Assembly (NCBI GenBank): GCA_944325575.1
Contig: CALVAR010000008.1
Span: 1 to 64,000 of the forward strand
Direction of reading: 5' to 3'
Source of the DNA: Candidatus Gastranaerophilales bacterium
Lineage (GTDB): Bacteria; Cyanobacteriota; Vampirovibrionia; Gastranaerophilales; Gastranaerophilaceae
Length of the DNA stretch: 64,000 nucleotides
The notes beneath the pieces were generated by a model. It was given only the letters and a program-made list of their open reading frames with translations, made no database searches and was not told the origin of the DNA. Position 1 is the stretch's first letter; each line of letters opens with the position of its first letter. Below are positions 14,160-59,962 of the stretch, one piece after another. The position numbers were made by a program, and so were the translations under genes.

Positions 14160-14394
14160 TATTTTATTTAAATGTTCTTTGTATTAAATCATCTTATTAT
14201 CTTAATTTTTAGGATATTTAAAATCAGTAGCTCTACAGGGCTATTTAAATGACCTATACAATAATAAGTTATGTTCTACAAAAATTAACGACGTAAAAAG
14301 TAATTTGTTCATTTTATAAATTTTGTAAAAATGATTGGCAAAAAATGTGTAAAAAATTCTTTTATATGTTTTCATAGTGAAAAAGGATATTTAT

Positions 14395-14895
14395 ATGTTT
14401 TCTGTTAATAATATTTTAAGAAGTAAGCATAATGCTCCTCCCTATGCACCTTCTTTTAAAGGTGATATGAATGCAGTGCGTTATGTAATAGTTGACGGCA
14501 ATGTTACCGATGATAAAAAAGTTGTGGAAGATGTTACAAAGCAGCTTGTTAAATCGTTAAAGAATTCAACTGTGGACAACCTTGAATTACGCAAATCAGT
14601 AAAACAGACAATTCCCGAATATTATTGGACAAATGGTTTTCAGGCAACAAAATTTTTGAAGCTAAATCTAATCGGCAGAGAGTTTAATATAATTCTCGGT
14701 GAATCTGCAGCAAAGCTTAAACATATATGGGAACAGGCAGGAGTCTCCCTTGCTGACAAGAAAAAACAGGCAGGAGATGTTGTAAGAAAATTGATTTACG
14801 ATAAAACCTCAAAGCACATTGCAATAGAAGCCATAACAGAAAATGTAAAAGGCAAAATTAAATATATTGCCAAAAGAGTATTTATTACGATTTAG
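14395..14895 (+). CDS. Unknown protein with N-terminal PSFKG motif (166 aa)
   Basis: No family is recognised. I chose ATG 14395, with AAAGGA eight bases upstream, over the GTG at 14377. The N terminus (MFSVNNILRS...YAPSFKGD) carries a short motif that recurs in other small unknown proteins of this window. The rest is mixed alpha/beta and Lys-rich, with no signal peptide or membrane segment. It is a single gene between the efflux operon promoter region and convergent secreted genes. Confidence 0.7.
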   Translation: MFSVNNILRSKHNAPPYAPSFKGDMNAVRYVIVDGNVTDDKKVVEDVTKQLVKSLKNSTVDNLELRKSVKQTIPEYYWTNGFQATKFLKLNLIGREFNIILGESAAKLKHIWEQAGVSLADKKKQAGDVVRKLIYDKTSKHIAIEAITENVKGKIKYIAKRVFITI

Positions 14896-57471: not shown

Positions 57472-58932
57472 TTAAACTTTATCGTAGATTTCAAGAGTAT
57501 ATCCGTTGGCTATTTCTTCTCTTGCAACGACTTTTACGGACGGCATCATTTGTGACAGCACAACGCTTGTTACCTGACGGATTTCCATAGGTACTATTAC
57601 AACAATCTCATCTGCGTTTATGTTATTTTTGTCTATAACTTTATATATGTTATTTACTATTGTTTTTATTTTTGTATTATCAATTCTTATAACAGTGCTT
57701 TTGCCTGATACTTTTGATGAAAGATACTTTAGTGATTCATCGGATAGTTCAAATGCCTGAATCAAATTATTTTCATTTGCTATGCCTTTTGAAATTTGTC
57801 TTGATAAAGAATGTCTGACTCTGCTCAACAAATCTTCTTTTGTCTCTTCATCTGCAAAGTCATTAATTTTTTCAAAAATATAAACAATGTCTTTTATTGA
57901 GACACGTTCTTTTATAAGGCTTGTCAGTATGTACTTTAGCTCTGCAATAGACACAAAGTCAGGTATGATATTTTCTATAAGGTAGAGATTATTTTCGCTT
58001 ACAATTTCTATATAATTGTTAATGTCATTGTAATCAAAAATTTCTTCTACATTTTTTATGCATACATATTCCAGTATTCTGCCTATTACCTGCGACGCAT
58101 TTAGACCCTTTACCCAAAAATTTCTTGTTTTTTCTTCGGGTATCCAGTAAAGCACCTTTCCCGTAATAGGATCCGCATCTTTTATAATGTCTTTTGATAC
58201 TTTATCAAGATTTAAGTCATCTTTAAAAAACATTAGATAGCCATTATAAACAACACCCTTGGCAGCACAAACCCCTCTTACATCAATTTCAAATTCGTTT
58301 GCCTGCAATGTTTCATCATTTTCGAATCTGACTTTGGGTATTATATAGCCGAGTTCTTCTGTGAGTTTTTGCCTGATTTTAACGGTTTCTGCAACAAGAG
58401 GTGCATCAAGATCAGGGTTTACAAGTTCTATATTTTCTTCGCTGAGTTTGATTTTAATCTTGTCTTCTCCGATTTTATCAAGCATAATTTCCGGAGATAT
58501 TGTATCTGCAAGCTGCTTTCTTAATTCTTTCAGCTCTTCAATATTCTTGTACATCTCGCTGTTGAGTTCTTGTCTTTGTGTTTCATTAGTTTCATCGATA
58601 AGCGATTTGATAGTATGAATTTTTTTTCGTTTTTCTTTTATTTTGCTTTGTATATCAATACATTTTTCATACGGCTCACTTTGTGCGGAAATCATTTTTT
58701 GCATTTGAGTTTTATAGCCGTAAATGCTTTCTTCCTCATCTTCGGTTTCTGTTGAAACTTCGCATTCTTTTACAAAAATACAGTTGTAGTTGAAGCCTTC
58801 ATCACCTTCAACTTCATGCATTGTATATAATTCCCACCCCAGCGAAGACATTTCATTTAAGAGAGATTCCATCTGAAAAGTATCATCACTTGGTACAGCT
58901 TTTATGCAGTATTGCATTCTTGTAGACTTCAT
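57472..58932 (-). CDS. Soluble FlhA-C-like protein with DUF4177-like N terminus
   Basis: The 486-aa protein has no membrane segment. Residues 6-56 (MQYCIKAVP...LGWELYTMHEVEG) resemble DUF4177. Residues about 85-145 form a coiled coil. Residues about 160-486 follow the cytoplasmic domain of FlhA/SctV export gates: IRQKLTEELGYIIPKVRF, NEFEIDVRGVCAAKGVV, ASQVIGRILEYV, FVSIAELKYILTSLIKERVSIKDIVYI-like landmark (SIAELKYILTSLIKERVSI), and VRHSLSRQI. FlhA needs membrane helices for export, so this is a soluble relative of unknown role. Confidence 0.7.
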   Translation of the reverse strand: MKSTRMQYCIKAVPSDDTFQMESLLNEMSSLGWELYTMHEVEGDEGFNYNCIFVKECEVSTETEDEEESIYGYKTQMQKMISAQSEPYEKCIDIQSKIKEKRKKIHTIKSLIDETNETQRQELNSEMYKNIEELKELRKQLADTISPEIMLDKIGEDKIKIKLSEENIELVNPDLDAPLVAETVKIRQKLTEELGYIIPKVRFENDETLQANEFEIDVRGVCAAKGVVYNGYLMFFKDDLNLDKVSKDIIKDADPITGKVLYWIPEEKTRNFWVKGLNASQVIGRILEYVCIKNVEEIFDYNDINNYIEIVSENNLYLIENIIPDFVSIAELKYILTSLIKERVSIKDIVYIFEKINDFADEETKEDLLSRVRHSLSRQISKGIANENNLIQAFELSDESLKYLSSKVSGKSTVIRIDNTKIKTIVNNIYKVIDKNNINADEIVVIVPMEIRQVTSVVLSQMMPSVKVVAREEIANGYTLEIYDKV

Positions 58933-59035: not shown

Positions 59036-59962
59036 CTATACATTTCCGGTTGAGCTGTTTCTGTCGTCTTCCAGCTGTTTTATGTCAACATTGTAATCTG
59101 ATTGTTCCTGATAGATGTTATTGGTATCTTGTATATCAATGTCAATGTTAACATCGCTGTCAACCATTTCTATCTCATCTTTTTTGTAGTTTTTAATTTT
59201 GCCGTCTTCTGTTTTTACGGCAATTTCATTGCTTAGAAAATGCAAAGAACAAACTCTGCCAAGACCGTCAGGTGTCATTACACCGGAGCCGATAGGAGGC
59301 ATGTCTTTTGCCGCATCAATATAGTTTTTATATTCATAATTTAAACAGCAAAGCAGTCTGCCGCATGTACCGGATATTTTCCCCGGAGTGATAGGCATTC
59401 CCTGATCTTTTGCAAGCTTAATGTTAATTGAATCAAATTTTCTTAAAAATGTACAGCAACAAAAAGGTCTGCCGCATAGACCGTTTCCGCATAAAAGCGA
59501 GGTTTCATCTCTTACACCGATATGTCTGAGGTCTATTCTTACTCTTTTGAAAACCTGTGTTAAATCTTTTAAAAGTCCTCTAAAATCAACTCTTTCCGGC
59601 GCTGTGTAGTAAAAAGTGATTTTTCTTCTGTCAAATGTATACTTTGTCTGTACAAGATTCATTTGCAAATTGTGCCTTGCAACCAGCTCTTTACAGGTTT
59701 TAAATGCTTCTTCTTCTGCAAACTCTATCTCTTTTAATGTTTCGAAATCTTTTGGAGATAGTACTCTAATCAAAGGTACAGCTTCCGGCATATTAGCTTC
59801 CCATGCTTTTGCAATAAGTGGGTTTACCATAAACACTTTTGCAACTTCTTCACCCTTTTCTGTTCTGACAAGAACCATTTGCCCGTGTTCAACATGTGCT
59901 GAGTCTGCAATTTCAAGAGGGTGAAATGTATTTTTTATTAAATTAACAGCGTATTTTATCAT
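59036..59962 (-). CDS. PSP1-domain protein (RicT/YaaT-like)
   Basis: The 308-aa protein has the PSP1 domain with two cysteine clusters (CGNGLCGRPFCCCTF and CGRLLCCLNYEY), which bind Fe-S in RicT of the Bacillus RicAFT complex. There it aids RNase Y action and phosphorelay. The tail (residues 250-308) is acidic. It precedes the FlhA-C-like gene by 103 bases in the same direction, so both could be cotranscribed. Confidence 0.88.
   Translation of the reverse strand: MIKYAVNLIKNTFHPLEIADSAHVEHGQMVLVRTEKGEEVAKVFMVNPLIAKAWEANMPEAVPLIRVLSPKDFETLKEIEFAEEEAFKTCKELVARHNLQMNLVQTKYTFDRRKITFYYTAPERVDFRGLLKDLTQVFKRVRIDLRHIGVRDETSLLCGNGLCGRPFCCCTFLRKFDSINIKLAKDQGMPITPGKISGTCGRLLCCLNYEYKNYIDAAKDMPPIGSGVMTPDGLGRVCSLHFLSNEIAVKTEDGKIKNYKKDEIEMVDSDVNIDIDIQDTNNIYQEQSDYNVDIKQLEDDRNSSTGNV

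What the first reader, a model, noticed from the sequence alone, without database searches (positions are those of the whole stretch)
57472..58932. Soluble FlhA cytoplasmic-domain homologue fused to a DUF4177-like domain
The C-terminal 320 residues follow the type III export gate cytoplasmic domain, which normally docks chaperone-substrate pairs. The membrane channel part is gone and a small domain plus coiled coil takes its place. A docking platform without its channel suggests reuse in a non-flagellar pathway. Its neighbour is a RicT-like protein.
Basis: inference. Interest (0 to 1): 0.75.

Follow-up and report, generated by a model that had tools for sequence, protein, structure and literature searches.

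The report
Channel-less FlhA platform in gut Gastranaerophilales
A non-photosynthetic relative of cyanobacteria from the gut carries a free-floating copy of the protein-docking half of the flagellar/type III export gate; this copy is conserved across its whole bacterial order, including species with no flagella, which suggests a dedicated extra part of a poorly recognised secretion machine.

Summary
Window 57472-58932 (-) encodes 486 aa: residues ~150-486 are an FlhA/SctV cytoplasmic domain (Pfam FHIPEP E 7e-51; AlphaFold model matches FlhA-C structures, Z 29), with no membrane part. It is preceded by a small beta-alpha-beta-beta domain, only weakly DUF4177-like, and a helical hairpin. The host is a Gastranaerophilales (Vampirovibrionia). 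The protein is single-copy, under purifying selection, and found in 108 of 108 order members in a phylum-wide sample and 0 of 136 genomes outside the order; a few other order members lack it. Its tree is monophyletic and joins the non-flagellar export-gate lineage, not flagellar FlhA. The genome has flagella and two complete export gates. The second gate (FliO/P/Q/R, FlhB, FlhA, FliF/H/I-like) persists in all 20 tested genomes without flagellin, and 18 of those keep the free platform. So it is not a simple truncated paralogue. The RicT neighbour is genus-specific and uninformative. Two of the three classical chaperone-dimple residues are replaced while 18 new positions became fixed, indicating a changed ligand. 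Most likely it is a cytosolic accessory platform of this order's non-flagellar type III apparatus. That role is inferred, not shown.

The parts
57472..58932 (-). CDS, 486 aa, soluble FlhA/SctV cytoplasmic-domain paralogue (order-specific family)
58759..58932 (-). Residues 1-58: small beta-alpha-beta-beta domain, DUF4177-like motif LLNEMSxxGWxLYxMxE
   Evidence: AlphaFold models; weak PF13783 matches in 17 of 36 members; invariant L25 N26 W33 Y36 E40
58714..58758 (-). Residues 59-73: acidic linker, predicted disordered
   Evidence: pLDDT < 50 over most of it
58501..58713 (-). Residues 74-144: helical hairpin / coiled coil replacing the FlhA membrane domain and linker
   Evidence: conserved P87 C91 K97 I98 K109 L123 N124
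57475..58485 (-). Residues 150-486: four-subdomain FlhA/SctV-C fold
59036..59962 (-). RicT (YaaT family) gene upstream, same strand, 103 bp gap; neighbour only within the genus

Best explanation
A duplicated copy of the non-flagellar export gate (FlhA/SctV type) lost its membrane half early in Gastranaerophilales, gained a small N-terminal domain plus helical hairpin, and was fixed as a separate cytosolic protein. It most likely works as an accessory platform of the order's non-flagellar, flagellum-related type III apparatus: it binds a chaperone, substrate or soluble ATPase-complex protein in the cytosol and passes it to, or competes for it with, the membrane gate ring. Shown: fold, absence of membrane part, ancestry, order-wide conservation, retention without flagella, presence of a complete second gate. 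Inferred: physical partnership with that apparatus, ligand, and hand-over or competition.
For: Fold of FlhA-C/SctV-C. Monophyletic (100/100) and attached to the non-flagellar gate clade, not flagellar FlhA; C-domain identity 27.6% to the own non-flagellar gate against 21.3% to own FlhA. Present in 108 of 108 order genomes in a phylum sample and 0 of 136 outside the order; nearly all relatives. Complete second gate in this genome: FliMN-FliO-FliP-FliQ-FliR cluster, FlhB, FliF/FliH/FlhA/FliI cluster. 20 of 20 genomes without flagellar FlhA lack flagellin yet keep FlhB, and those in the relatives sample keep the second FliP; 18 of the 20 keep the soluble platform. Twenty gate-wide conserved positions are retained. 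Purifying selection, dN/dS 0.02-0.09 where dS is computable. Elsewhere in the class the FHIPEP C-domain was also freed or re-fused several times, once fused to a relative of a protein encoded in the second type III locus (L192 7042-8823), which shows that detached platforms recur in this class.
Against: The gene never lies in a type III cluster in the 80 loci examined. Two order members that have the second gate lack the platform (G024, G025), as do other orders with that gate, so it is not essential to it. No order member without the second gate was found, so co-occurrence cannot tell partnership from common inheritance. Dimple positions F459 and T490 are replaced.
Confidence: 0.5

Rival explanations
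1. Neofunctionalised regulator: the FlhA-C fold is reused outside secretion, for example as a partner-binding scaffold whose N-terminal domain oligomerises, with no contact to any type III apparatus.
For: No genomic linkage to secretion genes; altered dimple and 18 family-specific invariant positions such as W273, Y301, N315, Y334, K355, N357, P448, E472; new N-terminal domain about as conserved as the rest.
Against: Derived from the non-flagellar gate and found only in a lineage whose sampled members hold that gate; the fold and twenty gate-wide conserved positions are retained.
Confidence: 0.25
2. Ring subunit or brake: the soluble domain inserts into, or caps, the nonameric ring of the membrane gate, the hairpin standing in for the FlhA linker and occluding a neighbour's docking site until a signal releases it.
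For: Hairpin and linker occupy the place of the FlhA linker, which in Salmonella contacts the neighbouring subunit and can block the dimple (PMC8166844); R391 and several positions in the 339-380 stretch are kept.
Against: Ring formation not tested; linker residue W354 is mostly Y/L/F in the family and D356 mostly K; sequence identity to the gate is only 28%.
Confidence: 0.17
3. Flagellar accessory protein.
For: This genome has flagellins and flagellar FlhA.
Against: 18 of 20 tested genomes without flagellin keep it; it does not branch with flagellar FlhA.
Confidence: 0.05
4. Simple truncated paralogue on the way to decay, no function.
For: Decaying fragments do occur: a 126-aa remnant at contig C2 with broken upstream frame (L007 7287-7667) and small incomplete C-domains in relatives.
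Against: Intact in 108 of 108 sampled order genomes, always with the same N-terminal domain; dN/dS below 0.1 where computable.
Confidence: 0.03

Closest known systems
FlhA / SctV export gate subunit (Pfam PF00771, TIGR01398, TIGR01399)
   Same: Four-subdomain cytoplasmic domain; about twenty strongly conserved positions
   Different: No membrane domain; extra N-terminal domain and hairpin; two dimple positions replaced; encoded away from type III genes
DUF4177 (PF13783)
   Same: Short motif LLNEMSxxGWxLYxM and a predicted beta-alpha-beta-beta layout
   Different: No match for the window protein and only weak ones for relatives; fused to FlhA-C, a combination I found in no source searched
Other soluble or re-fused FHIPEP C-domains in Vampirovibrionia (L186 5295-6956, L191 6998-7867, L192 7042-8823, L193 7567-8424, L194 7146-8036)
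   Same: FlhA-C domain without the full membrane half
   Different: Different N-termini (single hydrophobic segment, or a domain related to a type III locus protein), often incomplete, sporadic
Incomplete flagellar gene sets reported for gut Melainabacteria (PMC3787301, PMC4040986)
   Same: The reported ACD20 gene list includes two flhA genes and fliF/H/I/P/Q/R
   Different: Those papers read incomplete sets as flagellum loss; here the retained set is a second, separate gate lineage kept order-wide

Membership tests
FlhA/SctV export gate (FHIPEP) | N-terminal membrane domain | tested here: not met
   profile match starts at position 309 of 657; hydropathy max 1.4; 500-codon open frame
FlhA/SctV export gate (FHIPEP) | Four-subdomain cytoplasmic fold | tested here: met
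   VIA-align Z 29 over ~330 residues to FlhA-C; Foldseek E 1e-22
FlhA/SctV export gate (FHIPEP) | Chaperone dimple Asp456, Phe459, Thr490 | tested here: not met
   D456 kept in 20 of 20; F459 is T/S, T490 mostly R/K. The order's non-flagellar membrane gate also mostly has Y at 459
FlhA/SctV export gate (FHIPEP) | Nonameric ring | not testable with these tools
   no multimer prediction available
FlhA/SctV export gate (FHIPEP) | Encoded with export apparatus genes | tested here: not met
   80 loci: RicT, BamA-Skp-nucleoside phosphorylase or other neighbours
DUF4177 | Significant Pfam match over residues 1-58 | tested here: inconclusive
   17 of 36 members at E <= 0.1, best 0.006; window protein none; structure search of residues 1-145 gave no clear match
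Non-flagellar type III apparatus in the same genome | Second full set of gate proteins FlhA, FlhB, FliP, FliQ, FliR with ATPase, FliH and FliF | tested here: met
Non-flagellar type III apparatus in the same genome | Persists without filament | tested here: met
   20 of 20 genomes without flagellin keep FlhB; those in the relatives sample keep FliP
Non-flagellar type III apparatus in the same genome | Secretin, needle and exported effectors (injectisome features) | not tested
   rod-type proteins (PF00460) are retained, so it may be flagellum-derived rather than an injectisome

The most novel reading that the evidence does not exclude
Gut non-photosynthetic cyanobacteria keep an order-wide, filament-less type III export machine that uses a second, freely diffusing export-gate platform with its own N-terminal domain to select or stage substrates: a two-platform type III system not described before.
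Probability: 0.3. Interest if true: 0.78.

Novelty: new variant of a known kind. Interest (0 to 1): 0.58.

Why it matters
FlhA/SctV is normally one protein whose docking ring is anchored to its proton-driven membrane half. A conserved, independent docking half would show that the two halves can be uncoupled and would give a natural soluble system for studying substrate recognition. It also draws attention to a second type III gate kept across Gastranaerophilales, animal-gut residents, including species whose partial flagellar gene sets had been read as flagellum loss (PMC3787301, PMC4040986); that raises the question of what it exports in the gut.

Tried and rejected
RicT link: rejected, genus-only synteny. 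Simple truncation: rejected. Flagellar role: disfavoured. N-terminal domain fold: structure search of residues 1-145 gave only weak hits to small sheet domains such as the KCTD5 C-terminal domain and dodecin, Foldseek best E 0.03, not usable. No FliJ/SctO match was listed for the hairpin, which proves nothing. Apparent platform-only genomes (G131, G216: platform but no full-length non-flagellar FHIPEP) still carry FliP of the second type, so a missing contig is likelier than gate loss. A possible N-terminal SFKG leader as an export signal: enrichment only about 2-fold in Gastranaerophilales, few proteins; not claimed. Literature: no paper found on a soluble FlhA-C paralogue or on type III secretion in Gastranaerophilales in the held library; the titles and abstracts listed for DUF4177 gave no function and I read none of those papers.

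Full report
What is there. The ORF at 57472-58932 (-) encodes 486 aa. Pfam FHIPEP matches residues 128-476 to profile positions 309-654 of 657 with E 7.1e-51; the significant solved-structure hits are FlhA or SctV cytoplasmic domains or full-length FlhA/SctV. An AlphaFold2 model built from 36 family members has mean pLDDT 78 and superposes on FlhA-C and SctV-C chains at Z 21-29 over about 330 residues, with Foldseek E-values down to 1e-22. The membrane half is absent: the frame is open for only 500 codons and no stretch is hydrophobic enough to span a membrane by a simple hydropathy test. In its place are a beta-alpha-beta-beta domain (1-58), a disordered acidic linker, and a helical hairpin (74-144). 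The DUF4177 label is plausible but unproven: 17 of 36 members match weakly, the window protein not at all.

Where it lives. Relatives found by contig name are mostly labelled Candidatus Gastranaerophilales, non-photosynthetic cyanobacteria of the class Vampirovibrionia/Melainabacteria, and the window genome groups with them. Almost all relatives of the order carry an orthologue, 34-92% identical. A profile of the N-terminal domain plus hairpin finds one strong copy in each of 108 order genomes of a phylum-wide sample and none in 136 genomes outside the order (class sample). Selection is purifying: dN/dS 0.02-0.09 in the comparisons where dS was computable, dS being saturated in many.

Exceptions. 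G024 and G025 have the second gate but no platform, and G002 and the 83%-complete G055 show none either.

Gene neighbourhood. RicT precedes the gene in all 21 loci with at least 75% identity and in none of 58 more distant ones. Elsewhere the gene follows BamA-Skp-nucleoside phosphorylase or other genes (those names are from reading the translations, not from a family search). So neither RicT nor any conserved neighbour explains it.

The export machinery of this genome. Four FHIPEP places exist: a flagellar-type full FlhA (C23), a second full-length FlhA/SctV (C5), the window protein, and a broken 126-aa remnant (C2). The C5 gene sits with FliI ATPase, FliH and FliF homologues and a protein of unknown family in the FliG position. 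A second FliMN-FliO-FliP-FliQ-FliR cluster lies on C21 and a second FlhB on C12. The flagellar FliP-FliQ-FliR-FlhB cluster is on C7, and flagellin genes are present. Thus the genome has flagellar genes and a second complete gate. Which FlhB and FliP belongs to which gate is inferred from their pattern across flagellated and non-flagellated genomes.

The second gate without flagella. Of 25 genomes tested, the five with flagellar FlhA have flagellin and two FlhB genes. The 20 without it have no flagellin but all keep an FlhB, and those in the relatives sample keep FliP of the second type. Eighteen of these 20 keep the soluble platform. Rod-type proteins (PF00460) remain, and FliE and a transglycosylase lie beside FliF in one such genome, L195. 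Earlier papers described incomplete flagellar sets in such species as loss of flagella (PMC3787301; PMC4040986). I found no paper that treats them as a second type III apparatus.

Origin. A maximum-likelihood tree of C-domains puts all soluble proteins in one clade (100/100) on a long branch attached to the non-flagellar gates of the order, apart from flagellar FlhA. The exact attachment point is uncertain because the stem is long. Elsewhere in the class further FHIPEP C-domains without the full membrane half occur. One (L192 7042-8823) is joined to a domain related to proteins encoded at or near the second type III locus (BLASTP E 2e-11 and 8e-8 for single comparisons).

Function. In Salmonella the D1-D2 dimple with Asp456, Phe459 and Thr490 receives chaperone-substrate pairs and the FlhA linker can block it (PMC8166844). 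In the soluble family Asp456 is kept, Phe459 is Thr/Ser and Thr490 mostly Arg/Lys; 20 gate-wide positions remain, 28 are lost or vary, and 18 new ones became invariant. I infer a changed ligand on a retained scaffold. The most economical role is a cytosolic accessory platform of the second type III apparatus; neofunctionalisation outside secretion and a ring-capping brake remain open. Nothing here shows a physical interaction.

Limits. Genomes are largely metagenome assemblies. Every sampled order member has at least part of the second gate, so co-occurrence cannot separate partnership from shared ancestry. Ring formation, ligands and expression were not testable.

Noticed in passing
L192 7042-8823 (-), genome G034: FHIPEP C-domain fused behind a domain related to two proteins at or near the second type III locus (L006 10846-11826 and 1621-2607), with a hydrophobic segment between.
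   Followed up: partly
L186 5295-6956, L187 289-1236, L188 151-1113, L190 5804-6727, L191 6998-7867, L193 7567-8424, L194 7146-8036: Several FHIPEP C-domain proteins without the full membrane half in other Vampirovibrionia; L191's lies directly next to a full-length gate gene.
   Followed up: partly
L006 6385-13636 and L197 5865-9977 (own genome): Second, non-flagellar type III gate: FliF-[unknown in FliG position]-FliH-FlhA-FliI and FliMN-FliO-FliP-FliQ-[125 aa, no Pfam match]-FliR; kept across the order in genomes without flagellin.
   Followed up: partly
L151, L152, L153 (G010, G012, G001): A third full-length FHIPEP lineage in some genomes of the genus, distinct from flagellar and second-gate types.
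   Followed up: partly
L007 7287-7667 (-), contig C2: 126-aa FHIPEP C-terminal remnant with stops upstream: a decayed copy in the same genome.
   Followed up: no
window 14377-14895; L125 6034-7815 and 7831-9531; L066 7626-9480; L197 11556-11852; L200 11955-12395: Recurring N-terminal leader of the type MKINSI...SFKG on otherwise unlike proteins, some next to type III genes; possible export signal. Enrichment near the N-terminus about 2-fold in two Gastranaerophilales genomes, none in two other-order genomes.
   Followed up: partly
G131 and G216: No full-length non-flagellar FHIPEP found although FliP of the second gate and the soluble platform are present; probably assembly gaps.
   Followed up: partly
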